A stretch of DNA of 64,000 nucleotides. It comes from Antedon mediterranea. Taxonomy: Eukaryota > Echinodermata > Crinoidea > Comatulida > Antedonidae. Position numbers and translations under genes: made by a program. The DNA is taken from the NCBI RefSeq assembly GCF_964355755.1, contig NC_092675.1:26576412-26640411 (forward strand), read 5' to 3'. The notes under the pieces are model-generated. The model searched no databases, was not told the origin of the DNA, and saw only the letters and a program-made list of their open reading frames with translations. This document shows positions 27 to 53,999 of this stretch, piece by piece; position 1 is the stretch's first letter; each line of letters begins with the position of its first letter.

Positions 27-2783
27 TTATTTTAAACACTGACATACTTGTTCAAATATTGTTTTCATATCTGGAGTGTTATTATCAGCAATTTTATATG
101 ACACTATATTCTGCATTGCATATGGAAGATCACAGCCTTGTAATACAATCGGTAAAAGACAACTAAACCTGCGCCAAAGAGTCTCGAAAAAAGCTCTGTC
201 AAGCAACCAAGAAGTTATTGAATCTTCGAGAAGGTCTATAGAAACTATAGCGATGACATAACTACTATTATATATTAAACTAGCGTAACTCCTGGTGATG
301 TCTTCTCCTAAACGTTTATTTTGTTTCAGAGTACATATTCTAAAACCGTTTTTGGTAAGTCGGTGGAGTAACTCGTTACCAATGACGTCACCATCACCAA
401 TTGATAACAAAAATGCATCATCTAGGAAGAAAGTAAATTATTAATTTTAACAAGTCATCAATTTTAATTTTTCCTTAAATTACAAAACCATAAACCTAAT
501 GCCTTTACTACTTACATCTTTTTGCTAAATTAATTGCAACAGAAGACTCGGTCGTTTGTGTTTCTTTGTCATGTGATTCGGCGTTCTAAAAATATAATCG
601 TATTATTTATCATTTAATAATATCTATATCATTTGGTATAAAAATATGTACCTAACAATTTAGAAATAGACAAAACTGATGCACGGAACAGCCATCAATT
701 CGAAGTTAATTGTACGCAGATGTTATTTTTATAGTCTTGTTTCTTTCCTTAAGTGCTTGAAATGGAAAGAAGAAATAACAATTTCAAGTGGTAAAAATCA
801 ATCAAAGACAACCGGGAATAATTAGCGTTATTGTGACTGTTTAAGCGTGGTTCCCACTACCGACGCAATACAAGGACGTAACGCAACGCAAGTGAATTGA
901 CCAATCACAAGCGATGTCTTATTCGCTTGTGATTGCTAACTGTCTATAACTTCGCTTGTCATTGGTTAAAACGCTTGAGTTGCGTTTACGTCCTTGCGTT
1001 AGGTTCTAGTGGGAACCAAGCTTTAGTGTCTGTTCCTTGGAATTTTACAGTTGTTTTACCCACTTCGAATACTTACCGATTCCAACATACATGTACAATT
1101 TATTCTACTGATTCTATTAGTTTTATTCACACACTTGGAGCAAAATGGCAGTAACGCTGCGTAACTCTTCTCTGGCAGACTCGATTCTGGTGGATGTGAT
1201 AGCCGTCTCTGAACGAGTTCTTGAGAAAGTATCAAATAATTGTCTGTACCGCTTGGGCAACTAGCAACAGCACTTAGTTGCGGCCTAGAATGTAAATTGT
1301 AATTATGTAAATGTTGATCTGTGTTTCCCTGGATAAGTGTACCTAATGTATCTTTTTCCGGAATGATATTTTCAGACTGCTGAGAACTATTTAGATTTTG
1401 TTTCTCCTCTTCTTTACATAAATATGATTCCGTTGTGTCATCGGATAAGTTAGCACTGCGATTTCCATTGAAGTATTTAAACTCGGTCCCAATTGATACA
1501 TCTTTTGATCTAGTCTTAAAATTTTGTCTCTGTAATTTGAAAGAAAATAAAATCAGAGTAGCATTGAGTTTATTAAAGGCACATGAGTTTTTAAATCATA
1601 ATTACATCAGTCTACAGAAAAACAACATAATAAACGAAATTCAGAAACATAATTTCATCACCCCAATATTAACGATTTGATTTGAATGTTAGACACACAC
1701 ATTACTTCTTTGCACGTATTTTAAGGAGATGAGTTTTTTGTTATTCGTAAATTTGTTACATACCTTTGAACTATTTTCTTCTATAATGTTAAATACTATA
1801 TCTTTTTTAAGGGACATCACATGTTCAAATGCACGGTTAGCAACCTACGAAAGCAACCAAGTTCAATTACTGGTACAGTATAGCATTATCATTAAGACGA
1901 TCAGACACACGTGAGAACAAAATTAGGGATAATAAATAAATTAAAAGGAAACATTATACGGCTCTTTCCAACTTGTTTGCCGGATACAATATGTAAACAT
2001 ATGACAGAGAAAGCATAACACATTCACATTTTATTTACGACTTTCTGGGTTTATAAAAATAATGCTTGTTATGTACATCCTTCAATTGTAGTAGAAGCAG
2101 AATATTACAAGAAACGAAAATAATGCAACATAACAAACCAACATGTCTTAACTGCTCCTTTTGTTCTTTTTTCACAGAGGACCAAAGTGGATGACTAGGC
2201 AGTTTTTCGTCAATATATCTAGAAATGTTTTACATAAAGAACATATAGGCCTATATGAAAAATACAATATTCTCGTATTTTATGAACTTTATTAAGTAAT
2301 ATATTATACCTATACTTCTATATAAATGACGTTAGTCAATCAAAGGCATTTTACTGTGATGAGTTAATCTATAATATTCACCGTCACAGTCTGTTCTTAC
2401 ACACTTCTGTGTAAGAAGTTTAGATTTTAATACTTACATACAAATCCTGTTATACAAAACAAATTTTTCATCGTTTAAGTGTGGCTTCAACTTGTTTGCC
2501 TAGAAAAACACATTTATTCACTAAAATATAGTACAGGTCAGTACTTAAACGGGTTTTTAATTGAGTTGTTCATGAATCCCCATCATTGAAATAAGTGAAT
2601 CCTATTATGGAAGATTGGAATACCAACTAAAAGTTCTTTAGCAAAAATTCTTTTTAACTTCATCATCAGCTATATACGTAGAACGCCTAACTAGACATAG
2701 TTAGGCTACAAATGCATGTCAATTGACAACTTCGTAATCTTTAGTTATTGTTAAAACAAAGTTATTATTATTATTATTAGTGG

Positions 2784-2817
<34 letters not shown>

Positions 2818-3785
2818 TATTGCCAAAAACCAGTTACAAACAAACAAAACACAGAAACTAAGGGAGTAGGCAGGAACCTAAAAGTGAACCTAATCACTAT
2901 AACAAGAGTTCAGGTTCAGTACTCCCAAAGTAACAACAATGATATAAAATAAACTATATAAAAATATTTAAAAAACAAATAGACGAATCAACCGAGTCAA
3001 TATAAAATAAACGGATAAAATACATAATAGTCGATTCAACAAAGTTAATATAAAACATGTGATTTAAGTGAATTTAAAAATATTTGAAAACTGTCTAAAA
3101 TTAAAGAATTTTTAATCATTTCCGGTAATTCTTCCCACAACCTAGGGAATATATTAATAGCGGAATGATGAAGACAATTGGTTCGAGCATAGTGATGAAT
3201 GAACTTAAGTGTATCAAGGTGACGGCCATTAACAACTATAGATTGACGAACACTACTACAATCAACCGTTCCAATAAGTGATTTACAAACAAAGGATAAC
3301 AGAAGATAATTTCTTCGATTAGATAGTGTAGGCCAATTTAGCCTAGTAGCCCTTCACTGGACTGCCTCGATACGTTCCGTAAGTTTTTTGGTTCGAGGTA
3401 ACCACGCTGGGACACCATATTCAAGGATGGGGACAATGAGAGCTTTATAGAGTGAGAAAATAGCTGAAGGGGATGATCCTCCTGCAATACTAGGTACTAA
3501 TATTATTGTACGTATACCTAAGTTAGGCCGTTTCGATTTTTTGTCTGGAAAATCTCAAACAGTATACGTATGAAATGCCGTGTGTGCCAAATATGTATCT
3601 TTAAAATATTTTAAAAGTTGAAATTCAGTCTAGAACTTAGACTAGATTACCTTTGATAACATGGCAGATGCAAACTGAATACACCCATCAATGCTTGAGA
3701 GTTTTTGAACTTCTATCTTTCTAGCACGATCCAATAGAATGTTATAGCGGGAGACGCAATCCGATGACGTGGGTGCTTTGGCCAT
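27..3785 (-). CDS. TIR-domain protein with N-terminal AMSH/USP8-type (MIT-like) domain, 7 exons, ~423 aa
   Basis: Exons in transcript order, minus strand: 3785-3651, 2499-2438, 2218-2143, 1844-1764, 1529-1077, 585-516, 421-27. They total 1272 nt and all junction phases agree. The stop is TAA at 29-27. Residues about 14-118 form a helical domain. Its pattern (VLYNRICIYIDEKLPSHPLW, then a Lys/Glu-rich helix with EQLRHVANRAFEHVMSLK) resembles the USP8_dimer domain of AMSH/STAMBP and USP8. Residues 119-292 are a polar, probably disordered linker. Residues 293-423 are a TIR domain: box 1 YDAFLLSIGDGD spans the last junction, followed by LGEDITRSYASLIYNSSYVI and a W..FF region. The position of the catalytic Glu in NAD-cleaving TIRs (SxWCxxE) appears to be Arg, so adaptor signalling is likelier than NADase activity. 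The third exon's donor (GTTGGT) is weak. A polypyrimidine tract and AAAG acceptor lie just upstream of the start, so a 5' untranslated exon is possible. Confidence 0.75.
841..1024. mobile_element. MITE, GGTTCCCACTA inverted ends
   Basis: The ends are imperfect inverted repeats (AAGCGTGGTTCCCACTA on the left; TAGTGGGAACCAAGCTT on the right). The similarity continues inward through ACGCAA...AAGGACGTAA on both arms. Flanking TTA on each side suggests a 3-bp target, as in PIF/Harbinger-type elements. It lies in an intron of the TIR gene, just 3' of the exon ending at 1077. No coding capacity is seen. Confidence 0.75.
2683..2704. other. Perfect short palindrome
   Basis: GCCTAACTA and TAGTTAGGC form a 9-bp stem around GACA, inside the first intron of the TIR gene. 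No function can be inferred. Confidence 0.5.
2755..3505 (-). mobile_element. Non-LTR retrotransposon 3' fragment (reverse transcriptase C-terminus), inactive
   Basis: The minus strand from about 3500 to 3060 reads as the C-terminal end of a Jockey/CR1-like ORF2. It has the ALIVPILEYGVPAW motif, a TKKLTERIEAVQ segment, and closes with IFPRLWEELPEMIKNSLILD. One in-frame TGA follows EAVQ, so the copy is dead. Beyond the coding part a 3' UTR runs to a (TAA)n tail with GGCAATAAATAATAATAA at about 2760-2825, typical of CR1/L2-like 3' ends. The copy is 5' truncated at about 3505 and sits in an intron of the TIR gene. Confidence 0.8.
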
Positions 3786-12000: not shown

Positions 12001-15000
12001 TACCTCGGTCATTTTTGGTCAAACATGTATGGAAATACTCCCATAATTCAGCTAGTAATCAATTGTGTCTTGCCCTTACCAGTACCCATTTGTGCACCTG
12101 ATTGGAGAGAGGCAAACGGAAGTGTCTTGCCTAAAGAATATGCGACGAGCGTTGGATTCGAACCCATGATCTCACGATCATAAACGTCCAACACACTGTG
12201 CCACACGCATTACTTTAGCAAATCGTAGGCGACTTATTATGTGATATTCACTTCATTTCAAATAGTTTATTTAGTAATGGGAACGAATACAAGATAGCAA
12301 TTGAACATCATGTTACGTTTTTGTTTTTTAGAAAACAGGAAAAGAATCCCCGCAAGACGTTGTGGTAAGTTATGGTATCGAATCTTGGAGTTTTTGATTT
12401 CAAATCGAATCTTAACTCTGTATCTTTTAATTAACAAAACAACGATCCAATAATGTAGTACCATACCTCGTGCACTGTTTATACATGATATTTTTTATTT
12501 ATAGTATATCATGTTCTAGATTGTATTGTATTAATGCGATATTTCGTCGTAATCATGTGTGAAACAAAACGATTATTGTGACACGGGTCGAAAGTATACT
12601 ATTTTCTTAATATTATACTTATAAACCGAAAGTATCTATTGAAGAAAAGTGCATGACATATATGTGATGTCAGTATTTTCTTCACATGCATGTTGTCAAC
12701 CAAAGTCTTTTATATAATGAAGAGAGTCTGGTTATGTAAATATCAACTGTTTTTTATATTGTTTTCAGCCACCAACGTCAGATGATCTGGCTACCATTTG
12801 TTACACAAGTGGGACCACGGGGGACCCTAAGGGAGTGATGGTCACACATGGTAATATTATAGCCTGTTCAGCTGGCTTTATAGCACAAACTGGGGTAAGT
12901 AGAGGATAAAAAAGTAATTTAAAATGTGCTTATTATACATAATCACAATACACATTACAATGTTACGTAATAATGCACAATAACGATTTGATTATACACA
13001 GAAATAATTTGAAAAGTGACTTTTACTACAATAGCAATACAGGTACATTGTATTATTTACAATGTACATACAAATTAGACACCGAATACTCAAGTAAGAA
13101 TTTTTATATATAAAATTACAGAATCATTCATCACCCGTACCTTTTTAGAATGATATATCCTGCATTTTTTAATATGTTTAACACTTAACAAAGACATAGC
13201 GTATTATAAAGTTAAAAGTATTCTGTGATTATTATTAACAATGCACAATGTTTTTGATACGAATCGTTTGTTATAATTTGCATCTATTAGCCTATGGAAG
13301 CTTCAATGCAGCTAGAGAAAACGGTGCCTTTGATATTTCACGGCCTCTGTCTTTGTCGTGTGTGTGGAGGTCTACTACTAGGTGATCCATTATTATTCAT
13401 GATATGCATTAACCTTATTTGCAATTTTACAGAAACTATTGTATTTTACTCCCGATGATGTATATTACTCGTATCTTCCACTGGCACATATGTATGAACG
13501 ATTTGCAATGGTAAGAAACAAAATATTGAGTCCAGAAACAATGCACATTTGCACACTTTTAATTTTAAGATTCACCAAATCACTTCACATACCAGGGGGC
13601 GGTCGCAGGAATATTTTAAGAGGGTTGCCCAAAGAGTCCAGGGCTGTAGACACTGAGTATTTGAGCCACAGGACCCCTATTGTGTGGCCTGTGTTGAAGC
13701 GAATTGTTAAATGACACCCCCAGATGGCCGCAAAAAATTCATGATAAATGGAAAATAAAATATTTTTTTTTTACGCAAAGTTCATATGTGAATGCTTGAC
13801 CCATTAGAGGTAATCGCCGATATAATTTGTGCACGGTATAATATAATAATATACATATTGGTGACTGCTGTGCATTCTGCCAATTTACAAATTATTATTC
13901 TCTTCCAAACCGGACTTTATATGGATATTTTATACATGAAATGGGATTTAAATTTTAATTTAGTGGCATTTAGTATTAAATTAAGGGTGTTGCCGGGGCC
14001 ACTAGGTCAACAACCCTGGGTCCCGCCCCTGCATACACAAATATAATTTGATTATCATTAGTAGATGCTAGTTAGCTTATACTTTAAAGGTCGATATATA
14101 TATCTGCAGACATCACTTTGACGTATTAGCTGTAAAAACAATGTGTATAAAGAATCAATGTAGACCTACACCCCAACGCATCCCTAATTATGTATTCATA
14201 TTCTGTTTCTTTTTTATTTCCAATTTTGTCTTTAAAATAAAGACAAACTTTTTCATGCATGGTTCAAGTACAGGATTCTTCCAGGGAGATATCAAATTAA
14301 TGACGGATGACTTATTAACATTAAAACCTACATTTATGGCATGTGTTCCCCGTGTGATGAACCGTGTCTACGACAAGGTAAATGCTATAGTATTATAGAA
14401 ATGGTTTTATAATTTTGAAAGAATTTGTTTCGTAATGCACATATTCTTTGTGATTATATTCTACAAGAAACCACCACATAAATACGCCTGGTCTGCTCAC
14501 AAACAACAAGTATACATTTAATAATGTGAAAATACTATGCTGCTGAAGTATTGTATTTTTAACAGCGAAGAGGCGTCAGTAAATAATATCAAAACATCTG
14601 TATTTGAATTGACTATTCCTTAGGTAATGGCAAGAGTCCAGGACAGTAACTTTATTAAAAGATGGATGTTCAGCTTTGCAAGTACCATGAAAGGCAAGGA
14701 ACTAGAACGGTAAGAACTTCTTGAGAACTGAACTCTTAGCTTAGATTATTAAAGCTCTGTCTACACTATCAAACTTTATGTGACAAAAAATGTGTCCTTA
14801 ATATGTACATGATGATGTCATATCACTACCATATTTAAGCATATCACTAACATATTTGGGCACATCACACTAATTTGATAGTGTAGACAAAGATCGAGTA
14901 TAATTGACAAACAAGTCATAAACACTTTACTGGATGTGAGAACTAAACAATTAGTGAAAGATAAAAATACTCGCTAGAATTGGTTGTGTATTTTTTTAAA

Positions 15001-18000
15001 TGAATTTGAAAATACAATTTGTTTAATTTTTTTTTATGCAGGGGAGTCGTACGAAATGATGGTATATGGGATGGCGTCTTTAAGCAAGTTCGGGTAATAT
15101 TTTTTTATAAACATATTTCACATTTTTAATACTATAATTATATCTAGTTCAATCTCAAAGAGATTATGCTTGTAGAAACTGATTATGAAAGTGCATAAAC
15201 AATCTACATTTTAAAAACATTATTTATCTTGGAAGAATTTCATATGGTCGTGGAATAGGTATTAAATAAAATTTCTTTTGAACAACCAAAAATAGTATAA
15301 GCGAACTTACAGTACGTTTCGAAACCTATCAGGTTTCATAATCAACAGCACTGCGAATAATGTCAATTACTTTTAAGTAATTGACATTTAAAAATGTGGT
15401 TGTTGTTGTAAAGAAATAAAATGTCTTTATTGAATTTCTACCTCAGGATTCGTTAGGCGGTCGAGTTCGTGGAATGACAGCAGGTGCTGCACCAGTCTCC
15501 GCTGAAGTTAAACGATTTTGGCAGTGTTTCTCCGGTGCCTTTGTAAGTAAATCGAGCCATTCACTAAACAATTATTGATTGTAGTGACACCAATGAAGAA
15601 CTTCTTCTTTGATTTCTTTTTCTATCAAGGCACTTCGCCTCTTTTCTGAACAATGGCTGTTGTTTAATTCTGAATAAGACTATTTTCTAACTATTCTTTA
15701 ACTTTTAAATTTACTATTTTGTAACATTTTAGAAAATATTTTTAGAATTTTACATCGACTTTTGTATCCAGCGACATAAACTGGCCTATGATATAGGATA
15801 TTTTGTAAGCCTAAGAAACTTCTTATATTCTTCACAGCTTGTGGAAGGGTTTGGCCAAACCGAAGCTACATGTATCTCTACTCTAGCCTACCCAGCGGAC
15901 AACAGCCTAAACCACCAAGGTGCACCAATCTCTTCCTGTATGATGAAGGTTGTAGATGTTCCAGAAATGGAATACTTTGCTAAGAATGGACAAGGAGAGG
16001 TGAATAATGGAGTCATCAATCGTTACAAAATAAACATAATTTACTTAATAATAATTGTTGAATTAATAATGATGTGAATCACGATTAGAATTGTTTTCAT
16101 TTCACCCTATATGCCTTTCTTTCCACCCTATAGACCTTTCTTTCGTTCTTTCAAACTATTTTCCAAATGTTACTGCATGCTCTGTACAAAAGTGGTTACG
16201 GAATCGACCGATCATTTTCAGAATCATTATTTACAAAACCAATAACCTGTTAATGAAAACGAAAATCAAATGAATAATAATGTATTTCTTTTGATAACTT
16301 GAATATAGATTTGTATGAAAGGACCAAGTATCACAAATGGCTATTACAAGAATGAAGAGAAAACGAAAGATGCATTTGACAATGAAGGATGGCTTCATAG
16401 TGGCGATATTGGAGAATGGACAGAAGTAAGTAACTCTGTGTTTGACCACAATGTTGTTAATTAATGGTACAATATCGGAGGAAAGCGTTTACAGCGCAAT
16501 TAACTTCATGAATGTGTCATTAAATTCTCTCTTGCTTCTATCATTTTAATGATCTTTATTTCTGATAAATTATTTGTTTTTGTAGTGTGGTCAAATTAGG
16601 ATTATTGATCGTAAGAAGAACATTTTCAAGCTTTCGCAGGGCGAGTATGTGGCGCCAGAGAAGATCGAAAACGTCTACCTACGGTGTGAGTACGTCTCAC
16701 AGATATTCGTCCATGGCGAAAGTTTACAGGTAAAATTGTGATTATTGTTTTAATAAAAATAAATTTACCTTTGATTTGTTCATTAGGATTCATATTATAT
16801 ATGATTTACCAAATCAGTTACATACTTAAAAGTTATGTATTAATGTTTCAGTCGTGTCTCGTAGCCGTTATTGTTCCAGACCCAGATACTTTACCAAGAT
16901 TGGCAACTACACATCACGTGGAAGGAGACTACGAAGCAATGTGTCAAAGTTCGGTAAGAACAGAAATAATATTTCAAATATATTAGTATATTATACTAGT
17001 TATGCTTATGAATATTCGGTCAAAAAGTTATTAATGTCTTCTACATCCTATTTTCATATTTTTTTTGGAAATTTAAAGTTTTATATTTTATGGAATTGTA
17101 ACTTTTTAAAATTGTTTTTATATGAATTTTAACTTTTTTCAATTTAATTATAATGTGATGCTTGAATGCAGGCATTTTGTAAAAAATTGTATTCTTTGCA
17201 TTGACTCTTCAAGTCAGATGTAGGGCCTACAGTTGTTGCTACCCTCGTGAAACAAAGTTAAATGAATAATAAATAAAATCTAAATTCTGACAAAATAAAA
17301 CTGACATTCAACTGACTCAAACTCCGCTCTGAAATGTCCAATGACAGATTCGGTTATTTTTTTTGTAGGTTATGAAGGTCGCCATTCAAGATGAACTGCG
17401 TAAACTAGCCAAAGAATCCGGCTTAAAGTCATTTGAACAGGTTTGTACAGTCAACAGTTCTGCATAAAACATTTATTTTTATTTTATTTTATTCATTTTG
17501 GCAATAAACATAAAATAATAATTACAACAAAAAAACCATAGAAATATAAGACACGACACTTTAATAAAGTTCACATAATAAATAATATTTCTAAAAAGGT
17601 TGATCAAGATTCAAGTGATCAATTTTTTGTGATATACCAAAAAGTGAAGTGAATGCTTCAATTGGTTATGTGTGAACAATCTTTAAGCTCTGTCTACACT
17701 ATTAAACTAGTTTAACAAAAAAAAGTGTCATGTGCCCAAATATGGTGGTGATATGTTCAAATATGGTAGTGATATGACATCATCATGGCCATATATGGCC
17801 ATATCAAATTTTGTTGTCACATAAAGTTTGATAGTGTAGCCAGAGATTTAGACTGACCCACTATATTGAACCTCGAAATAATAAATGTCTTAATTACCGT
17901 AAGTAAATGTAAACATTATTGTTATCCAGATCAAAGCTGTACATATGACGTCAGAAGCGTTTAGTATTGAGAACCATCTATTAACACCAACGCTGAAGTC

Positions 18001-19070: not shown

Positions 19071-22000
19071 TTAATTTTCATCTTCTTCTTCGTCTTCCTC
19101 CTCCTCATCATCATCTTCATCCTCAGTTACCTGAAAAAATAGATAATCAGAATTATACATTTTTATTTGAAAATTACTAAATTCAGAGATCAGCATCACA
19201 TGTAGTTTTTTTGATCAAGTAAATATTTATAATAGGCATATAGAAAATTTATACTACGACTGTATTGTGTGACATGCTGTACAGTACTATGCTGTTACGG
19301 TAAAATAACATATTTATAAACATGTGTGCATTTTGAAAGCAAGATACTTTATTATAACATTTTGGAATTCTGGATAGTATGTCCATTCACATTTAAAAAA
19401 AAATGTATTCCACCCATTAAAGTATATTGAAGCCACTCTGGTAACATAGCATGGATTTGAACCCACTACTCCAGGTTGATAAGCGAGTGTGTCAACCTCT
19501 ACTACCTCCACTACTGCTACTTTCATTTCATTTTCACAAAATCTAACAACAAATAAATTAATTCAAGTACAGGATGGGAAAACCATTCTTTGTAAACTAA
19601 GTTTCATTACAAAGGGGCTATTAGAAAAATCCAGGAACTATGACATGATTTGAACCAAGGGCCATGGGATTGGTAGGCAAGCATGTCAACCACCAAGCCA
19701 CAGTGCCACTACAATATGAAATAAAATACATTTGTTCATCTTCATGAAACATAATGTAAACTCTAAAAATAAAAAAACACATTTATGCCACAGCTAACTA
19801 CTAGCTATAATAGTAAACTAAAGGTAAACTACTAAGGGCCATTTTACACAGACAAGCGGTAATGGTAAGCGGAAAACGGCGTAGCTTGTCCCACGTAGAA
19901 TCCGTAGCTATCCTTAGCGGACCCCTAACATAGATTCTATATTTTTATTACTGTTACCGCTCATCTGTGTAAATTGCCCATTAAACAGAATTGCATCATT
20001 ACCTCTTCTCCTAGCTCCTTCAATTTACTTCTGTATTTCTCCACTTTGGCATCAGTATCCGTTAATAACACTAATAGGTCATCTAGTTCTTGTTTATTGT
20101 CTGCAGCTTCCTTTCTAAACTTCTCTTTCTCGTCTTCTACTCGTGTATTCGTATCTTTTAAATCACCGATTTCCTCTTCAAGCTTCTTAACTTGTGTTGT
20201 TAAACTTGAGCAAGTGTCCGTAACAGTTTTAAGTTGATTTTCTATGGTTTGGTTTGTACTGATTAGTTTTTGATTGTCTGAGCTTAGCTTACTATTGTGG
20301 TCCTCAGCCTGGGCTAGCTGGGCCTGGCTTTCTGAATGCTTGGCAGTTAAGGCTGCCTTCTCGGCTACAATGTTTGCATTGTCTCCACTAGGGACAGCTT
20401 CTCCCTGATGAAAAATCAATATTTTAGAAAATATAAATGCAGTTTATATTATATATATTCACTTTTAAAAAATATATATAATTCTACATGTTAATTTAGT
20501 ACAAAATACAGAGAATTTTTTATAAGTACTCCTTTATAGTAGTTTTGCCATTACAAAACCAGACACAGCATTACCAAAGGCATCCCTCCACCCACATTTA
20601 ACTCTAAGCAAAATTATGCACTACCGCCCTCTCTATACATCTTCATTAATAATTAATGGGTAATAAGCGCCAGAAAATGTGATGGTATTTTAAAACAACA
20701 TTTTGAGAAATCTTTTACAATGAAAAAACAGATAAACAAGAGTGAAAACAACCACTTTGAGTGGCAGTAATCACTGTGTAATATAATAGAAAGTTCATTT
20801 ACATAAAGAACAACTAGCACAAATAAATATTTGTCAAGAACATAAACTTACAGTCTGTGTTAATTGATTTTTAAGGTCAGTGCATTCGCCCTTTAACCTT
20901 TGCTCCTCATCTTTCTGAGCTGCTACAATCAATTTCAATTCATCAATTTCTTTCTTTTGCTCTTGTATTGATGATTGAAATTCAGAAATCTGATTTTGAT
21001 TTACTCCACTGTCATCAACAAGAACAACCTTGGCATCCGCAATTGTTAAGTCGTTTTTCTGTTGCAAATACAAAAATTAAAACATAGTGCAATAGTATAT
21101 ATGGCTATACAACTACTGGACAATAAATACAAAATAGATCTCCTTCATTCACCCTGTTCTGTGTGACAGTAACACATAATACATACAAAAACAATATAAT
21201 TAAAAACTAAACATAAAAATAACATTTAATCTTAAGTGACCCTCTTCAGTCCAGGATGACGATCAATACACTGAAAGACAATTCTCTACCCTTTTCAAAT
21301 AATATTCCAAGTTGAAATATCAGTACACAGGAGAAGCTCATCTCATACGAGGAAATGGGGGTAAAATAATCGTGCCTAAGGATACAAGTAATAAAGCAAA
21401 GATAGGTCTTGAACCAATGACTCTCACAATCTAGTCTGATATCCTTCACATCATGTCATACCACTCCCTATATGTACAGCATAGTAAAGTATAAGGGTGT
21501 GTGGAGCAGTGTGTTGGACGTTCGACCCTGATTGTGAGATCGAGGTTCGAATCCAACTCTCGCCGTATTGCTTATATCCTTAGGCAAGATACTTTACTTA
21601 AGTTTGCCTCTCTCCACCCAGGTGTATAAATGGGAACCTGGTTAGATCAAGACACAACTTTGCGCTGATTACTATCTGCATTATGGGAGTTTCCATACGT
21701 GTTTGAAAAAAAAAATGACTGGGGAAATAATGTTCAGCGCTTAGAGATTTCACAACATTAGGCACTATATAAATCCAGGATATTATTATTATTATTAAAG
21801 TATTTAAAAAATCATACTGCTGTTTAGTGATATTATGGCAGACTATAGTAATACCTGGAGCTGGGAGAAGGTGATAACTGTAAAATGATCAACATAATTA
21901 GTACAACATTGTGATGTACAGTGGTAGTAATAGGAGTGTCCCCTGAATAGGAGTTGATGATAGTGTTAAAATATATATTTCCTCTTGATTGCTTTACAAG

Positions 22001-23868
22001 TGTCCCGTTTAACAGTGAGCTCTACTGTTCTTACCAATTTTTGTATGACATCATCCTTCTCTGCAGTTTCCTTTCTAAGTGTTTCTTGACTATCTCGCAA
22101 CTCTTTTAATTCTGCTGCTATTCTTATAGCATCATCACCATTCCCCCCTATAAAAAATACAATAGCAATAATTAAACAACTACTAAAATTTGAAAAAAAA
22201 AAGAATATATAAAATTGACATTGATAATTATACTTTTCCGCCACTTTTCTACCAATGATGCAAAGACTACCCTTCGTTTGTGTGACGTTTACAATAAATA
22301 ACTAACTACAGTGGATCGCTAAACCCCCCCCCCCCCCCATCCCAATACCAAACACATGCCTTTTTCACTTGAGCTTCTTTGAATACTGTTCCGATGAGCT
22401 ATCATATGGGAGCTTCAAAGTGCTGGAGAACAGGGCAGTGTAAATGGTTTCTTTGCTTTTCTTCATTTTTTGGTTATCTTAAGGATATTTTATGGATCAT
22501 TTTTGTGTGTAAAGCACTACAAACATTGTATTGAATGCTATATAAGACTACCATTATTATTATTATACCAACCACACAAAAAATATATAATATAAGTCAA
22601 CTATGAAATGTATTGCTTTGTGGTAAAATCTCTTGAAAGAGTGTTCCTATGTTCCCTTGCATTCTGGTACGTCAGTCCCCAAGCAAAGGGATATTTAAGA
22701 AAAGAAAGTGCCTAATCATATGTAACTGCGATTAAAATAACTGCTTCGATCTTGGCCGTGTGCCAGACTGCTTCCTATTAGCAAACCTCAATCAATCAAG
22801 AGGCATTCAAGATATAATTCGCAAGGCAAACCGGCCTAGTTGGGTTGTTATTATTGAATTTGTTTAAAATATGTAATGAAAAGATTGCATACCTTGGGCT
22901 TTCATTAAGGCATACTGATCTTTAAGCTGTTGTATCTGTGAGGATTGTTCATTTAGCTGTAATTCAGCAGCTTTATGTTCCTTTTGTAGCGCTTCATGTC
23001 TTCCACGAAGCTCATTCAAATCATTATCCTACATTATATTATTAAAAAGTAAATTATTAAAACTGACAATTAAAAAAGAAATGAAAGAGATCACTATAAA
23101 AACATTTTCATTTCAGGCATTTTACTAGCAGAATATACAAAATATTAATGTATATATATTTTACAATCGCAATAATTTACAATAAGTTCATCTGATTTCA
23201 TAGTGAGGTATACCGACAGAATACATTACTGTGATGTGTAAATTGTTCATGGATAATAAGATTTAATTACAGTATTTAATATCTTTCTACAAGACTTAAG
23301 TGTAAATTTAAATTCTACAACACAATATGATAAAATACATAGAAACTGTGAAATTAATCACTTATTATATGCAGACGATCTTGTATTAATAGGAGACACT
23401 GTTAAAGGTTTACAGAGACTGATTAACATCTTGGGTAAATATTGTAATGAATGGGGATTAACTATAAATGTAGAAAAAAATAAAATTATTGTATTTAAAA
23501 ATGGGGGTAAACTAAAGATGTTTTAAAAAGGAAACTCAATTGAAATTGTTGATTCGTTTAAGTATCTTGGGTTGTATTTAGCCTAAATGGAAGGTGAAAT
23601 AATACAATACAGTAGATAGTAACTGTTGTCTAGAAAAAATGTATTATTTAAGATAAGATAAATCTTTATTGTCATGAACACAACAAGGTGAACATGAAAT
23701 TGGTTTTCCTTGATGCTTAAAAACACATACACTATATAAAACATATCAATACAATACAAGTTATATTTACAGAAGGAATACAAAAACAACTATCTTTGAA
23801 TGCAATGAATTCTAGCATCAAATGAAACTTTGCTAATGAATGGAACCATATAACAAATGACAATACAA

Positions 23869-23899
<31 letters not shown>

Positions 23900-26800
23900 G
23901 GCAATTCCATAGTGCAGAGGATTTTTTTCCATTTTTTCAAATTAAACCAATCAAACTATATTTGGTATCAAATTAAAGATTATTTTATAGAGAATTAGGT
24001 TATATGAAAAAAAAAAAATTAGCGCCTTGATATGATATGGAAAATTTGATTCAAAAATTGATACCTAAAAATGTAATGAAAATGAGAAATGTATGACCTT
24101 TTTCAGCTTCAGTAATAAATAATTAGAGTGGTGTAAAAAGTTAAAATCCATGTTATTTCAGTTTAGTACATAACATTTTAGACATAAGACAAAAAAAAAT
24201 TTCTGATTTTACGTTAATTAATTTTGGCCCAATAATAATAATGTATCATATTTTGTAATTCCGACACAAAAAAGTGTTTTTTTTTAGGATTTCTTATAAA
24301 ATAATTTCTGTAAAAAATCAAGACTAATGCAAATCAAGCAAGAGTATAGGCATTATATTATGATAATTATTGTTTTTAATTTTTTTTATTTCTTAAGTTA
24401 TTGAAGTTTAAAAACTGAAATTCCGTCACAAATCATTGGTTGCGGAATTACGTAATTCCACAACACTATTATTTAACATAGTATTGATGCAAAACCATTT
24501 TTTAAGCAACTTTTTCTTAGCATGAACACAGCTACCAGCAAAATGTGTACAAAGTTTATGTGGTTGTTTATTATTATGGATCTATGGCTTCTTTTGTTCG
24601 ATTTTTTTCTCAGGCCTAGGAACTCTAATAATTTATTTTGTTATTTATCACACCTGCCATTAACTAAATGCGAACAATGTCCAATGTACAGAACAAGCTA
24701 TTACATAACTTCCAGACTTTTCTCATAACTAAAACTTATTCATGTGACTCACTTGCACTCTCAGAATAATTCCCATTGTACAGAAAGAACAACTCCCATA
24801 TAGTACGGAATAAACAATTCTTTTTAAATGAAACAAATGAACCTATAAACGCACAGAAAGGAGATTTTGTTCTTATCAAATATACCATAGAAAGAAGCAA
24901 GAACATTTTTAACTATGTTGCAATAGTTGATGACATTCCTAAAGACAAACCAGAACTTAACATTATTCATTTATATAAGTTTGATAAAGAAGGGAAGATT
25001 TTTGTTGTTAAAGACTTGGTTGGGACTTATGGGATAATTAATAGAGATCAAATTGTATCTGTACTCCCAGCACCATTGATGGACTCTAAAGAAAGGTATC
25101 ACTTTAAAGAACCACTTCCACAAAGCTATGGGATAAAATGTTTTTTTGGAATACGGTCAATAGTCACTGTTAACTTAAACATGTAAATAACATTAATTCA
25201 ACTGTATAATTCCGTAATCATATTCATATTTCACCTAAATATCACAATACAATAATAGAAAATGTAATTTTATTCTTATCAGATATTGGTATGTGTTCAT
25301 TATTATATTTAGTAATATTTCTAATTCAAAATACTCTATATAATCCATATATTAAAACAAAATAAGTTCATATTTTTGTGATATTAATATCTGTTTTTAG
25401 AACCATTAGATCAAATGAAATAATGTTTTTTTTTTAACATTGCAACAATTTTATAAGACTGTTTTTTCTTAATATATTGTGTTTTGCCTTTAAAATTATT
25501 CAGAAACCCTTATTAAATAAATTTAAAGATGGTCTGCAGATTTCAATTTCAGAGGTAATTCCGTCACTGTAATTCCGTCACCGGACCATGTGTCAAATTA
25601 TTACTATATATCAAAAACTGAAACTTTTTTTTAAAAATAAAAACTTATGTTCAATACTACATTAAATAATGGCTAAATTTAATGTATTAATTTTTTTAAT
25701 TTCCAGTACAATTCAAAGAGTTTTAATGAAATGTTTAGTGGTAAAAATGAGGTGGTTTTTCGGCGAAATTCCGTCACGGTATATGTTTTATGATATTATA
25801 AAAAAATATGGTTGGTTTTTTAATTTTTTTTTTGTGGAAATAATTAGTAGAATCACTAGCTATTAAACTATTAAACTTGTTTTAAAATCTGCCTTAAACT
25901 AAAAAAGATACAAGGAATTAAAATGTAAAATTATGGAAAATGTGTAATTCCGTCACCGTGGAATTGCCCTAATAATAATAATAATAATATTAATAATATA
26001 ATAATAATAATAATACCTGTACTCTTATGATATCTTTATATTGTGTCACAATGTTATCATGATCTTCTACTGTCTTTTTGCTTTCAGCATCTTCAGCAGA
26101 CGTAACAGATTTACAAAGGTTTCCTATAGAAGTAATACAAACATTATACATAAAATTATTTCTTGTACATAAATTAGGTTTACTAGAATGAAGGGACACC
26201 ATCTAATTAGTGAATGTATGATGACCTCTCTGTGGCCGGATTGTGAAATTGTTCTAAAAAATACAATGGTCGCAATCACAATCGTAATCCTAACATAGCG
26301 GAAGGCTATACAGGTGCAAAAGTTGTTTAGGAGGGGATAGAACAAAAAATTCGGGTTTATGGTGCTATAATCATATTAGTTATTAGTAATATTATTTCTT
26401 TTGAGATATAATAATGCAAAGTTCCATTTCATTTTTTTTTTCAATTTTATTCCCTCCTTTTAGTCCCTTGTCATCTTTAGTCTCACATTCCTTTTAGCAG
26501 TCTTAAATAATGATTTTATTAATACAATTATTTTTCTCTCAAGAATCCATGTCTAAAATCTGAGGAATCGATTGACGAAGCATGTTTTAATGTCAATGCA
26601 TGCGCACAATAATTTAAGATTACATAACTAAAACAATTGGAAGCTCCCTAATATCTATGGCGATTTAACTGCATTTTACCTTCTAACTGTTTGTATAAAG
26701 ACGTAAACTCGTAGTCAATTAGTAAATGTTCAGGCTGTGTATATCGTAACTGAGGCTTCTGGGCTGCCATTGTGTAACTCTCGTGCTTCGTCACCGACAC

Positions 26801-29800
26801 TAGTTTTTCAACAAGCGATTCTAAGCCAACTCGTTTTGTAATTAAATTTCTAAGACTCTCACTGCAAATAAAAGTATAAACATAATTTTTAAGATTTAAA
26901 AAATTTTTTTTTTTGCGAGTTGTAATTATACAGGTAATATGGTTTGTGCAACATATTATTAGTATTTACACATTTTACACATAGGTCATAACAAGTAACC
27001 GTGTGAAAAATTGTTATTTTTCCACTTGAATTTTGGAATAAATAAATCAATTGGCCTCATATGTTTTGTAGAAAAAATTTATTGATTTTACCAACATAAA
27101 GTTGAAAATTACATATTTCCAAGAATCATATACCTTTGGTACTATCTTTTGTTGAAAAAAACAAAAAGATGAGGAAATGAGTCTAATAATTTAAAATTCT
27201 TAACAGTGTGTGCATTCAAAGGTTCCATTCTCACGGAATACAAATAATCTTTCTTTTGTAACAAAATGACAATAGTAACAAAGATAAGGGGTTTTTTAAC
27301 CTTGTATATCACATGTGGCATTATAAAGATGAACTTTACTTGCACTGTCATAGAAATATAATTACTGACATGGTATTTTTTGGGGATTTTCTTTTGAAAT
27401 TTAAACTTAAATTCTTGGAGATGCTTATATTTATTTCCGACTAGTCCTATTCCCTATGTTTATTAGATCTAATTTCACGTCACAAACTACATACAATGTA
27501 AAAATAAAGACTGTAATGGTCCTATTGCGATAACCTTTTTTTCGTCTTTAAACGGTTAAAAATAAGATTCTATAATTTAAGCTGCCTGCTATAAATCCCA
27601 ACATGCATTGTGCGCAGATTACTATTTTTGTTTTTCTTCTATGATTCACCCACTTTCCATTGATCATGAATGTCAAAAACAAAACAGAATTTTTTCAGCA
27701 AAAATATAAGGTTTTCCCCAGTCTGTGTTAACGGATTCTGGCAAAAACAATTAATGCAGCAAATAGACTACGTTAGGCTAGGCCTATGGTTAGCGTACGA
27801 TGTACATGACCTTCAATGAATATCTAGGATTTCAAATATATCAATAAAAAAAGCCTTCAAAATGCTATAAGTTATAAAAATTGCAATTGATTATGTGAGG
27901 CATACAAGTCCTTACCTTGTAAATGTGGCATTTGAATTATCATTAAAATGAACCGAGATTCCCAAAAGGAATGAACATAAGCCTTGAACTAGTGCCTCCT
28001 GTTCATCTACGTGCTCAGCTACTTGTGCCATAAGCTGTTTAATAATTAAAGAATATTATATCACACAAAGTTTTCCATTTTTTTCGCGCCGTTCCTTTAG
28101 GCAGTTATATTCAAGAGAACGGAAGCATTGGGAACCAGTTACCATGCGGTAGCTTATAGTTTACTACGGCTGAAAAAATGGGTATTTGGAAACTCAATGC
28201 ACGTCTGGGAAAAAATTGTGTCTATGAAAACATTTGCTGATATTATATTGAGATGCATGTAGACGGTAGTTATCGTGAGATGAGTAGTGTTGTTTATATA
28301 ATTCTTTTAATTGTTGTTTATTTTCAAGCCTTAATTCAATTTCATAGGACTGGAGATGTAAAACATACTATCTCCACTCTGTAATTGCATATCATGTCTT
28401 TAACAAAAAAAGGATACAAATGGCACATTGGCTGAATTAGCTAAGAAATGCGTGACAGCTAGCTGACAGTTGGCTAGCCATGAACAAAGTAACATCAGTA
28501 GGCCCAGTCTCGTTTGAACCTTAGCTGTTGGCTACAAAAAGAAGCAAATTGAAAATAAATTATTATTATTATTGTGGTTGCAATAAACTGTGTGTATTAT
28601 TATTAAAAAATAAATGAATGCATTCCATTTCATTTATTTCGTCAACAATAGAGAATGACAGGATTCCCAAAAGCGAACTAAATCAAATCAAGTGGGTCTC
28701 CAAAGCAAAACATAATCATCCAACAATAAAATACAAAATGACAACATTTAAAACAACGTGAAGATTTAAAAGCAGTAACTGCAGTAGAGTAATTTTGACA
28801 TGATTCTTTCAATGGAAGACTTCATTAACAACTTTGTCCAACAAATCATGATTCTATAGCATACCATATATTTGCATTAGATAAAAAATACAATTGCTAT
28901 TTTAAATAAATCCTCAACATTTAAATTGCAAAAAAACAACACCTTACCGAAGATAGCATATTGGTACATTGCTGTAAGAGAGACACTGAGGGATTGCCAG
29001 GGCCTGTAGCCAGTTGCACACGTAGAAGCTGTTCTTTCTGGCTTGGGTTGTCCTTCAGGGCATGTGCAAGAGCAACAGATGCGCACCAGTTGGACACAGA
29101 ATCCTGGCTAAACAGTCCACCGCATAGTAGCTGACCGGCTGTAACAGCAGAAGCTGTGCAACAAAGAAAATTTGGTAGAAAAGCATTTTTGTTATCGATA
29201 GAAAATATTATATATTTGATTGATCACTTTATTTCAGAATAAAATTCAATATTTATATACAAGCAATACAAAACGGCAAATCACACTAAAATAGGATTTT
29301 CTCCCATTTAGTGAAGGAATTTGAAGATCATAACAGATAGTTCGTAGTACACCTAACAAGATCATTTTAACTATTCAAAACTCTTATTCTACAACTTGCG
29401 GACATGCTCGTAAAAAGAGGGAACTCTCCTCGTGGAGAGAGTAGTACTCTTTGTTAAATAAACAGAAATCAACAACACAATTATTTAATAATTAGACTTA
29501 TATATATTTTTGTAATGGAAAGATGAACATTATGGCATGCAGCTATAAATATCAAATTTTGAATGTAAAAAATCACTGCCCAATCACTCTCCATTTTAAT
29601 TGTCTAAATTTTTGCCAATCTCACCATCTGCTGTGGCTGGTAAAAGAGTTGATATAATCTGTTCTTGTCCAACCTCATTCTTGTATAAGAAGCATTGAAA
29701 ACAGTAGAGTACGGCACAGCGAAGAACAAACGGTTGCTTTTCATTCACCATGGACATCACAAGCACAACAATTGCAGGCCTACAAAAAGTAATAAAGAAA

Positions 29801-32800
29801 TGTATTTCTCCTTTATTTTGGTACTAATCCCAGCTATTCTGATTTAAAAATAGCCATAAATGTGTAAAGCTAGAGAGAGAATTCACTATGGCAAAAAGTA
29901 ATAACAAAGAAATGTATTTCTCCTTTTAAATTTTGGTACTAATCCCTGCTATTCTGATTTAAAAATAGCCATAAATGTGTATAGCTAGAGAGAAAACCCA
30001 CTATGGCAAAAAGTAATAACAAAGAAATGTATTTCTCCTTTATTTTGGTACTAATTCCTGCTATTCTGATTTAAAAATAGCCATAAATGTGTATAGCTAG
30101 AGAGAGAACTCACTATGGCAAAAAGTAATAACAAAGAAATGTATTTCTCCTTTATTATGGTACTAATTCCTGCTATTCTGATTTCAAAATAGCCATAAAT
30201 GTATATAGCTAGAGAGAGAACTCACTATGGCAAAAAGTAATAACAAAGAAATGTATTTCTCCTTTATTTTGGTACTAATTCCTGCTATTCTGATTTCAAA
30301 ATAGCCATAAATGTATATACAGTAGCTAGAGAGAGAACCCACTATGGCTGCATCAGTCAGCCAATTAAATATGCTAGTTTGAACCTGCATCCACGAGCGC
30401 ATTGCAGATTGTTGAGCATATGAAGGAGAGCATAATCTATAGATATTCCTCATACGCGAAAATTTAAGTCATTTATAAAAAAAACATTGATTGCATTGCA
30501 TTAACAATACAATTTATAAAAACTGTTTATGTGGGTTTAATAATACTTATAATTAGTAACTTTATTAATATTACAGTTGACATTTTGAAGAGATCCCGTA
30601 CTGTTCTAGCTTACCTTGGTGGTGTTGACGGAGCGCTAACTGATGCAAAAAACTCTTGGTTTGTTTTTGATCCTCTAATAACCTCTGACACAGTATTTAT
30701 TGTCTGTAAAGAATAATATAAACAAAGGTATTATTTTATTTTTCAATTTACACAAATCTGTTCTACACACTTTTTTTCCCATGCAACATTCTGAAATCTG
30801 GGTAGTTAAGGAATTGACAGGAGCTATATCAATACCAATTGGGTTATAAGCATGTGTTGACATTTGTTGCTTTGTAGTGTATAGCATTGTATAATATAAA
30901 GTGGATTGCCATTTAGTTTGGTTTTTTCATAAATAACTTGGTGGTTAATGTGATTCAACCCTGACCTAATAAAAAGGTTGTACCTCAAGGCTGTGAATCA
31001 CCTTTCTGTCCTGAGCCTCAAATCAGAATTTTATAAGTACAATATTATAGTTTATTCATTGAGTGAACTTGCTGTTGGATGTAAATTAAGAAAAAAAACT
31101 CCTGAATCTTTATTTAATTTTTTTTATTTTTTATTTTATTCAATCGAAACCAACAGCGATAATTACCGCCACTAACAGGTTTGATACAAACAAAGCCAGG
31201 ACTGTTTAAAGCACCTTGATTGGTCCTAACATTGCTCAAGGGCTTCTCTCGTCCAGTGTGCCCACCTTGAGGAAAGGCATGAGCCAATACGTCTGAGGTA
31301 GATACTAGATGCAGGGGCTGCCATAAGAGTCAGCAGTGCTGATTTCAAATGCCTAACGGGACCCCAGCTCCATATACAGCACCCGATATTCCCAGATGGT
31401 CTCCCATCCAAGCTCTAACCAGGCCCAACGTTGCTTAACTTCGGTGATCTGACTAACGTGGTAAAGCCGTATTTTCAACGTGGTAAAGCCGTATTTTCAA
31501 CGTGGTAAAGCCATATGACTTGGTTTGCCCTTTCTTTTGAGATTTTCCAATATAAACAGGCCATAAAAAATAATACAAATTCTAGAGTCTATTAAAACAA
31601 ACCTCTGTGAGTATGTCAGCAGGCACACCACTAGCCATCAATATAGTGCACAACTGTTTCAACAGACCACATTGGTGGATCACTTTCTGACAAGTAGCTG
31701 TAGCTTGTTGTGGGTTGCTAGGCGACACTAAAGTCCGAACCACCTGAAGCATTGAATTTACATTGTTGACCTTCTGAGCTGACCATCCAACATCCAGACT
31801 TTTTGGTTCGTTGTTTTGAAGATCAAAAAAGGGGGCCAACTTTTGTACATACCTAAATAAAAATAAGTATAAGTACCATATTAGAATAATAATAAAATGC
31901 AGCATAGACATAGATATAATAATAAACATCTATATAAATTAAAAATTAAAAACAATTTGAAAAAAAAACTAATACTACTAATGTTCCACAAGTACTAAAA
32001 TACAAGAAACACAAAAAAAAGGCTAAAAAAATTACAATAGTATTACCTTCCTTCCTTGAAAAACGTCTGATTCGAACTGTTCTTTTTTAATAAATTAAGC
32101 AACAAGAGAAGACAATCTTCAACCACAATACCGCCCTCACTACCACCTTCCTCCGAGATAATTTCAATCAGCCTTTCAAATGCATTTTCAAAAGCTACAA
32201 TCTTTTGAATGTTTGCATTATTTTTTGTGAGTTGGACCAGCAAAAGTAGACCCTAAAAATATAAACAAAATAAAAAAATAAAACAATTTATCATGTTAAA
32301 TTACTAATTGTTCGTATGTTAATTAAATGTTTTCAATACACAGTTTTAATGTGGCACAGTATTCATAGAATGAAAGCAAATGGTCAAATCAATATAAATG
32401 GCAGTCCTTTGTTTTTAAGTAGAGTAAGTAAATCTTTATTCTCTTGGGAAATTCTCAAAAGCTCCAAAAAAAAAAAAGCTTCTGTAGGAAATGTTTTCCT
32501 CCTGCTTTTACGAAAGACTGAAATAGATTTAAGATAAGTGTACAAGTTATAATGTGCATTCTAACTACATATCTGTGTGTACTAGGCTGTGGCTTTAATT
32601 AGTGTTTGGTAAACAATAAACAAACAAGCTTACATCATTTCGTATTACTTCACGACTATCCGATAGCAGGTCCATCAGTTTTGATACACCCATTGGACTG
32701 ACCAGCACACACTGTTGAACTTGAGTTGACCGGTGGACTGTTAATGCGGTCAAAAGCTTAACTGCAGGCCATCGAACTTTAAAGTCAAACTCCTAATTTA

Positions 32801-38585: not shown

Positions 38586-40171
38586 CTAAACAGTCTTCTG
38601 AATCATACCGGACATTGCAAGCAAGAGCGTAGTTAAAATGGTAATAAACAACATTAGCATAAACGAAAAGAAATCCATTTTTTTTAATCGCCTCTTATCT
38701 GCTTCAAGTTTTCCTTTTTCTTTAATACTATTGTCAGCGACATCTTCTATCATTGGATCCATGTCTTGTCTAGATTGCAATTGCTATATGTAATAAAAAA
38801 AAAAAGGTATTACAACTAAAATGATAATCCGTATCGAATAAGTAATTGAATCATATATAGTATTACGATTACGAGCATGGAGAACTTTTCTAAATAATTC
38901 CTTCATGGATGATGATAGGCTTGATAATAAATTGTTGCATGCATCCAAACACGCGGAGTAACACAATTATTATTGTATATAATACGGTGAAGGTTAAGGG
39001 TCTTTCACACCTGTTCCGGTACGGCATTCCGGTCCGTCGCCGGCAAATCAAATCCGAACGTCAATTTTTCGTTTTCATGACGCTCCACGCGGCTACATAT
39101 ACGCCGATTCATATTATGCGCGTTTTCGATTTGATTTACCGACGCCGTGGGTATTTTTAGCTAGTATTAATTTCAAGATTTACTCAACATGTCTAACCTT
39201 TCTCATCCATATCTGTGCAGCCACTAAACTCGCTAAAGTAATTTGGGCAACTATAGACACAGTGATTGTAACAGCAGTAAAACAGTACAGAGCGTCTACA
39301 GATGCATCAGTTTTGATAAAAAATACTAGAATATTTAATGTTTGCTGTAGTCCAATCACTTGTAAAATTCCTTGAGATGTATGTTCGTAATCGTTTAGAA
39401 GGCTTAGTTCTTTACTCTGAAAGATACGTGTTTGACTTGAAATTATATCATTAGACGACATCTCAATCGTTATTTTATAATTAAAGAACATACATTTACA
39501 TTTTAACATTGATCTTCTTTATAGGCTTACCTGTTTTCTTTCCACCGGTTTTTCTTGGTTTAACAATCCTGTCTCTATAATTGGCCTAAGTGGAAAATAT
39601 AATATAAATTGTAGTCATTGAGTATCAGAATAAAGATGAAAAACGTTTCCTTAAAATTATTGAGTAGATACAGCAATTCATAGTCTTGTTATCTATCCTT
39701 TTTCTATTTTTGATTACACTTGTAGGCTAACTGTAATACTCTGTAGTATGTAGATATTAGACATATGATTTTTTTTTATTAACTTGAACGTCTTCAATTT
39801 CATTGACACACACTATGATATACCTAAAAAAACATAAGTCTAATGATAAGCATGAGTGAAAATGAATTCCAGCAGCATAATTATGCAGTTATTTTTTAAC
39901 TATTTAATATACGATTTTAAGGTATATAATAGACATACTTATAAGGTAATGCGGACCTTTTGTGAGCTAGCTCCCATTCTCAAATAAAAGCGCTCCACAT
40001 TTAACAAATTCTAGATCCGCTTCTGTTGTAGAAATATCATTTAATGCATATCTAGCTATTTATACAAAATCAATTTCTAAATTAGTCAATACAAAAGAAA
40101 TCCGAGGCGGAATCTACAACAATAACTTACTTTTTATCGTCACCAATATTATTTTCTTCTGAACCAGACAT
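38586..40171 (-). CDS. Ninjurin-like two-pass membrane protein 1 (170 aa, 4 exons)
   Basis: Exons: 40171-40131, 39585-39531, 39416-39198, 38783-38586; all phases fit. The N-terminal 32 residues are polar. Residues 43-65 (HTSQGILQVIGLQQTLNILV) look amphipathic. TM1 is about 74-101 and ends QIWMRK. A charged loop of about 40 residues follows, then LKKMDFF and TM2 (146-165, LFITILTTLLLAMSG). Spacing and patterns (Leu/Ile-rich amphipathic helix, S-I-V-x-Q-I in TM1, L/M-D before TM2, A-x-x-G at its end) fit ninjurins, which oligomerise to rupture the plasma membrane in lytic cell death or act in adhesion. The family call is inference from pattern. It is the array member nearest USO1, and near-identical to member 2 in the third exon, so their duplication is recent. 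Confidence 0.7.
38995..39160. repeat. GC-rich foldback repeat within intron of ninjurin-like gene 1
   Basis: GGTCTTTCACACCTGTTCCG...GTCGCCGGCAAATCAAATCC is mirrored by TTCGATTTGATTTACCGACG. A copy occurs at the matching place in gene 2 (43285-43465), so it predates their duplication. Confidence 0.6.
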
Positions 40172-53400: not shown

Positions 53401-53519
53401 CATGGACCTACAATACTGTTCTGTACAAGACCTGTTTAGGCATCCACCTGTGGACTTTCACTTTAAAGGTCTTGGTTTCCTAATCATACAAGAAACAATG
53501 TCTAATTTAATCAATCAAA

Positions 53520-53995
53520 GTAGTGGGTCCAGACAAAGAAGGGGGTGTAAGACCATCCACAGACAAAGAAGGGGTTGTAAGACCATCCACATACAAAGAA
53601 GAGGGTGTAAGACCATCCACAGACAAAGAAGGGAGTGTAAGACCATCCACAGACAAAGAAGGGGGTGTAAGACCATCCACACACAAAGAAGGAGGTATAA
53701 GACCATCCACAGACAAAGAAAGGGGTGTAAGGCCATCTACAGACAAAGAAGGGGGTATAAGACCATCCACTGACCAAAAAAGGGGTATAGGACCATCCAC
53801 AGACAAAGAAGGGGACGTAGGACCGTCCATAGACAAAGAAGGGGGTGCAAGACCATCCACTGACAAAGAAAGGGGTATAGGACCACTTACAGACAAAGAA
53901 GAGGGTATAAGACCATCCACAGACAAAGAAGGGGTGTAGGACCATCTACAGACAAAGAAGGGGGTGTAGGACCATCCACAGACAAAGAATACCTG
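53520..53995. repeat. Minisatellite, 30-bp unit, ~15 copies
   Basis: The unit is GACCATCCACAGACAAAGAA + GGGGGTGTAA, with small variants (TATAA, TATAG, GACGTAG). Because 30 is a multiple of three and the unit lacks stops in several frames, long ORFs appear on both strands. They carry no start context, splice sites or domain and I do not call them genes. Confidence 0.95.
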
Positions 53996-53999
53996 CAAG

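What the first reader, a model, noticed from the sequence alone, without database searches (positions are those of the whole stretch)
27..3785. Fusion of an AMSH/USP8-type dimerisation domain to a TIR domain
Seven exons join in phase from ATG to stop. The N-terminal ~118 residues resemble the MIT-like USP8_dimer domain of the deubiquitinases AMSH and USP8 (LYNRICIYIDEKLPSH against the family's LYxKYxxLxxEKLPxH pattern). No JAMM or USP catalytic domain follows; the protein ends in a TIR domain. This would connect ESCRT/endosome-type scaffolding with TIR signalling. I know of no described family with this layout.
Basis: partly seen in the sequence, partly recalled or inferred. Interest (0 to 1): 0.85.

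Follow-up and report, generated by a model that had tools for sequence, protein, structure and literature searches.

The report
AMSH-derived ESCRT domain fused to TIR
An animal gene joins the endosome-docking front end of the deubiquitinase AMSH to an immune-signalling TIR domain, which suggests a protein that brings Toll-type signalling complexes directly to the membrane-sorting (ESCRT) machinery; we found no description of this combination.

Summary
Seven GT-AG exons on the minus strand (3785-27) give one 423-aa frame. The N-terminal ~118 residues match Pfam USP8_dimer weakly (E = 0.0012, below the curated cut-off). The decisive evidence is from the same genome. Its single AMSH (STAMBP) gene, 5.5 Mb away on the same chromosome, carries introns at exactly the same alignment columns and codon positions as the window gene: three of three inside an intron-blind alignment (chance about 1e-6), and the fourth with the same phase. 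USP8 has a different pattern. So the N-terminus descends from the first four coding exons of an AMSH gene by DNA-level duplication, and exons 1-4 are real. The C-terminus is a true but divergent TIR domain (Pfam; shuffled-score z about 12 to TPR-TIR paralogues; the model's top PDB matches are all TIR). It lacks the NADase glutamate, so it is probably a scaffold and not an enzyme. No JAMM, USP, STAM-binding or clathrin-box part remains. Only two of five published CHMP3-contact residues are kept. Best reading: a TIR sorting adaptor whose localisation module is an AMSH-type MIT domain. Not shown: transcripts across exons 4-7, ESCRT-III binding, presence in other species. The papers searched describe no such architecture.

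The parts
3651..3785 (-). Exon 1 (45 aa, ATG start, ends phase 0): start of AMSH-type MIT/USP8_dimer domain; intron at the same position as AMSH exon 1
2438..2499 (-). Exon 2 (ends phase 2): LYNRIC...; intron position and phase as in AMSH
2143..2218 (-). Exon 3 (ends phase 0): YIDEKLPSHPLW... core motif; intron position and phase as in AMSH
1764..1844 (-). Exon 4 (ends phase 0): last helix of the MIT domain; next intron phase as in AMSH
1077..1529 (-). Exon 5 (151 codons, phase 0 to 0): linker without a Pfam match, no STAM-binding motif, no clathrin box
516..585 (-). Exon 6 (70 nt, phase 0 to 1): linker end
27..421 (-). Exon 7: TIR domain (residues about 293-423) and stop codon

Best explanation
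It is a single gene for a cytoplasmic TIR sorting adaptor. Its first four exons are a duplicated copy of the MIT-coding exons of AMSH; these were joined, through a newly acquired linker, to a TIR exon. The TIR domain most likely binds TIR domains of Toll-type receptors or adaptors. The MIT domain most likely holds the complex at ESCRT-III-bearing membranes (endosomes). The protein would thus place TIR signalling complexes at the site where receptors are sorted, or hand the receptors over to be sorted. Shown here: the gene structure, descent of the N-terminus from AMSH, the TIR fold, loss of the JAMM part, absence of the NADase glutamate. Inferred: ESCRT-III binding, receptor binding, direction of the effect.
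For: Continuous seven-exon frame, best frame in each exon. AMSH of the same genome has introns at identical columns and codon bases (36/3, 58/2, 86/3) plus a fourth of the same phase; random placement reaches three coincidences in 1e-6 of trials. SW z = 8.6 with 0/1000 shuffles; hhalign probability 86%, E 5e-6. TIR: Pfam, z of 10-12 to TPR-TIR and other TIR paralogues, AF2 model pTM 0.70 with the top 20 PDB matches all TIR, best TM-score 0.73. Catalytic-Glu column is Leu. AMSH MIT binds 10 of 12 human ESCRT-III tails, CHMP3 at 11 nM (PMC9477494). AMSH and USP8 exist separately in the genome, so this is not a mis-assembled AMSH.
Against: No transcript evidence. Of the five AMSH residues reported to make polar contacts with CHMP3, only E72 and K107 are kept, Y80 is W, K88 aligns with Q (it is also not K in own AMSH) and E104 is M, so ESCRT-III affinity may be lost or altered. 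No recognisable output motif (TRAF6, RHIM, death domain). An AATAAA lies in intron 4 (sequence), though such hexamers are common at 33% GC.
Confidence: 0.55

Rival explanations
1. Two adjacent genes: a short MIT-only protein (exons 1-4) and a separate TIR protein (exons 5-7 or 6-7) with its own start.
For: No transcript data; AATAAA within intron 4; reading through the exon 4 donor gives a stop after 24 codons.
Against: Exon 4 ends with a donor in the same phase as the matching AMSH exon; exon 5 is a 453-nt frame of phase 0-0 without an in-frame ATG near its start, flanked by strong splice signals; introns 4-6 are only 234, 491 and 94 nt; all phases fit.
Confidence: 0.12
2. The protein is a negative regulator: it binds TIR complexes without an output module and carries them into ESCRT-dependent degradation, or acts as a decoy.
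For: No death domain, RHIM or TRAF6-type motif was found; the NADase glutamate is absent; MIT domains recruit cargo-processing factors to ESCRT-III (PMC9477494).
Against: The vertebrate sorting adaptors TIRAP and TRAM are also short TIR proteins and are activating; nothing here decides the sign.
Confidence: 0.3
3. The MIT-like part has lost ESCRT-III binding and now serves only as a helical oligomerisation or linker domain.
For: Only 2 of 5 CHMP3-contact residues kept; 25% identity to own AMSH.
Against: The core (VLYNR, EKLPSH) is kept and AMSH MIT uses more than one surface for different ESCRT-III tails (PMC9477494).
Confidence: 0.25
4. A decaying partial duplicate (pseudogene) of AMSH that happens to lie in front of a TIR remnant.
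For: Strong divergence from AMSH; a retrotransposon-like remnant sits in intron 1.
Against: All seven exons are open in frame at 25% identity to the source, with intact splice sites; a decaying copy this divergent would carry stops.
Confidence: 0.04

Closest known systems
AMSH / STAMBP (JAMM deubiquitinase)
   Same: N-terminal USP8_dimer/MIT domain; same intron positions and phases over the domain
   Different: No coiled-coil exon, no STAM-binding motif, no clathrin box, no JAMM domain; a TIR domain instead
USP8 (UBPY)
   Same: Shares the Pfam USP8_dimer family
   Different: Intron pattern different, sequence similarity near shuffle level (z 2.3), no USP domain
TIRAP/MAL and TRAM/TICAM2 sorting adaptors
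   Same: Work-alike: a localisation module plus a C-terminal TIR, no catalytic domain (general knowledge)
   Different: They use lipid-binding or lipidated segments, not an ESCRT-type MIT domain; the TIR sequence is not specifically close (z 1.5 and 1.4)
TPR-TIR proteins of the same genome (C1:17939900, C1:39848371)
   Same: Closest TIR domains found (z 11-12)
   Different: Large TPR arrays in place of MIT; the TIR identity is only about 20%
SARM1
   Same: TIR fold
   Different: No SAM/ARM parts; catalytic Glu column is Leu; no sequence similarity above shuffles
PumA, a bacterial TIR protein that binds ESCRT-I UBAP1 and TLR adaptors (PMC5494471)
   Same: Precedent for one TIR protein contacting both ESCRT and TLR adaptors
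   Different: Unrelated bacterial protein; binds ESCRT-I, not described with an MIT domain

Membership tests
AMSH/STAMBP family | N-terminal USP8_dimer/MIT domain | tested here: met
   Homology by intron positions and alignment; Pfam score itself below cut-off
AMSH/STAMBP family | C-terminal JAMM metalloprotease domain | tested here: not met
   No JAB match in the 423-aa protein; the downstream DNA holds opposite-strand desaturase-like genes
AMSH/STAMBP family | STAM-binding motif PxV/IDRxxKP and clathrin box | tested here: not met
   Motif scan
AMSH/STAMBP family | CHMP3-contact residues E72, Y80, K88, E104, K107 | tested here: inconclusive
   2 of 5 kept, one aromatic swap; residues from PMC9313428
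USP8 family | USP catalytic domain and USP8-type N-terminus | tested here: not met
TIR-domain superfamily | TIR sequence and flavodoxin-like TIR fold | tested here: met
TIR NADases (SARM1 type) | Catalytic glutamate in helix C | tested here: not met
   Leu in the aligned column
TLR sorting adaptors (TIRAP/TRAM) | Localisation module plus TIR that binds receptor TIRs | not testable with these tools
   Architecture fits; binding needs experiment; no specific sequence kinship
TICAM/TRIF | TRIF N-terminal domain and RHIM | tested here: not met
   No Pfam match

The most novel reading that the evidence does not exclude
A previously undescribed class of TIR adaptor in which an AMSH-derived MIT domain binds ESCRT-III directly, so that Toll-type signalling is started or stopped on ESCRT-bearing endosomes by one covalently joined protein.
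Probability: 0.4. Interest if true: 0.8.

Novelty: new variant of a known kind. Interest (0 to 1): 0.62.

Why it matters
In vertebrates the link between TLR signalling and endosomal sorting runs through separate proteins. Here evolution has fused an ESCRT-III docking domain to a TIR domain in one polypeptide. If it works as inferred, it gives a direct handle on whether ESCRT recruitment promotes or terminates TIR signalling. It is also a clear example of exon-level domain capture, in which the intron pattern shows descent where sequence profiles alone (E about 0.001) would leave doubt.

Tried and rejected
A copy of the N-terminal part elsewhere in the genome: none besides the gene itself. AMSH through Pfam JAB hits did not surface it; a human AMSH protein query did. 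USP8 as the source: rejected. SARM1-like NADase: rejected on the missing Glu. TICAM kinship of the TIR: no support above shuffles. Literature: no paper with both 'USP8_dimer' and 'TIR domain'; searches on STAMBP + TIR, MIT + TIR and ambulacrarian TIR repertoires gave no such architecture in what was listed; a survey of amphioxus TIR combinations (PMC2575513) does not mention ubiquitin, MIT, USP8 or STAM. Ninjurin identity for three short membrane ORFs in the window: not supported by Pfam.

Full report
The gene. On the minus strand, seven exons (3785-3651, 2499-2438, 2218-2143, 1844-1764, 1529-1077, 585-516, 421-27) join with GT-AG introns and consistent phases into a 423-residue frame. With a codon model trained on open frames of this genome, the frame used is the best of six in all seven exons and has no internal stop. 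Intron 3 has a non-optimal donor, GTTGGT; the others are close to consensus. Downstream lie two opposite-strand stearoyl-CoA-desaturase-like genes (recognised from their histidine boxes and sequence); upstream on the other strand is an AMP-binding (acyl-CoA synthetase type) gene. No other coding stretch that would extend the protein was found.

The N-terminal domain. Pfam USP8_dimer reaches E = 0.0012 for residues 1-128 (19.4 bits, cut-off 24.6), and the PDB search gives AMSH (2xze) at E = 0.03. This alone would be weak. The genome has one USP8 N-terminus match (C2:16044881) and one AMSH gene (C6:21071995 onwards, with an intact JAMM motif THPTQTAFMSSIDLHTH). The first four coding exons of AMSH were mapped: their introns have phases 0, 2, 0, 0, as do those of the window gene. 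In a Smith-Waterman alignment made without knowledge of introns (25 identities in 99 pairs; z = 8.6; 0 of 1000 shuffles as high), introns 1, 2 and 3 fall in exactly the same columns and codon positions in both genes. Random placement gives three such coincidences in about 1 of 10^6 trials. The fourth lies past the alignment's end with the same phase. USP8 has three junctions in other places and phases (read from the sequence), and its similarity to the window protein is near shuffle level (z = 2.3). Inference: the N-terminus was copied from an AMSH gene at the DNA level, introns included, not by retroposition. That AMSH sits on the same chromosome, 5.5 Mb away, fits but does not prove an intrachromosomal origin. 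The copy is far more divergent from own AMSH than own AMSH is from human AMSH (alignment), so the event is old or the copy evolved fast.

The TIR domain. Exons 6-7 score E = 1.1e-5 for TIR_2 and pass the curated cut-off for TIR (21.7 against 21.3 bits). An AlphaFold2 model from 16 own-genome sequences has mean pLDDT 75 and pTM 0.70, and all of its 20 best PDB matches are TIR domain structures, the first being the oyster TIR-STING (TM-score 0.73). The glutamate used by TIR NADases is Leu in the alignments, so an enzymatic role is unlikely. This inference rests on alignment in a divergent region.

What is missing. No JAMM or USP domain, no STAM-binding motif, no clathrin box, no simple TRAF-type motif. 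Exon 5 is a 151-residue linker without a Pfam match.

How it most likely works. Human AMSH MIT binds 10 of 12 ESCRT-III tails, CHMP3 with KD 0.011 uM (PMC9477494). Of the five AMSH residues named for the CHMP3 complex (PMC9313428), the window protein keeps E72 and K107, has W for Y80, Q for K88 and M for E104; own AMSH keeps all but K88, where the alignment is uncertain. ESCRT-III binding is therefore plausible but not assured, and may differ in partner or strength. With a membrane-locating module at one end, a TIR at the other and no enzyme or output module, the architecture is that of a sorting adaptor in the sense of TIRAP and TRAM, with ESCRT-III as the address. Whether it promotes or ends signalling cannot be told from the sequence. 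A bacterial TIR protein, PumA, that binds both ESCRT-I UBAP1 and TLR adaptors (PMC5494471) shows that the two systems can be bridged by one TIR protein.

Novelty. Amphioxus and other invertebrates carry many lineage-specific TIR combinations (PMC2575513), so a new TIR partner is in itself a known kind of event. The paper that surveys the human MIT proteins mentions no TIR, and no searched paper was found that describes an AMSH/USP8_dimer-TIR protein. Other animal genomes could not be searched here, so the spread and age of the architecture are open.

Limits. No expression data; the spliced N-terminal domain could not be folded; the species was not identified.

Noticed in passing
window 3045-3554 (minus strand): Intron 1 holds a broken stretch that reads like the C-terminal tail of a non-LTR retrotransposon reverse transcriptase (judged by eye; no convincing Pfam match), followed by an AAT-type microsatellite at about 2760-2820; this explains the long first intron.
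   Followed up: partly
L008:1435-3336 (-) and L009:49-1896 (+), i.e. C1:17939900 and C1:39848371: Two long open frames with TPR repeats followed by a TIR domain; these are the nearest TIR relatives of the window gene.
   Followed up: partly
L010:1258-1935 (+), C1:38760527: A divergent TIR protein with a motif that resembles TRAM by eye (FQEDVW...NVIPV); no specific kinship was tested for it.
   Followed up: no
window 39180-39518, 57260-57541, 60714-61001 (minus strand): Three paralogous short open frames with two hydrophobic stretches (GILQVxGLQQTxNILVxFxK...); no Pfam family.
   Followed up: partly
window about 19961-31929 (minus strand) and 14072-16077 (plus strand): USO1/p115 vesicle tether gene and an AMP-binding (acyl-CoA synthetase type) gene, confirmed by Pfam on single exons.
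   Followed up: partly
G000 C3:5.55-5.66 Mb and C11:5.62-5.66 Mb: Tandem clusters of TIR domains, many of TLR type, in a genome with at least 69 TIR matches.
   Followed up: no
window 53507-54010 and 50166-50807: Tandem repeat coding-like frames (DKEGGVRPST and GNGDDQIDLDEAV units).
   Followed up: no
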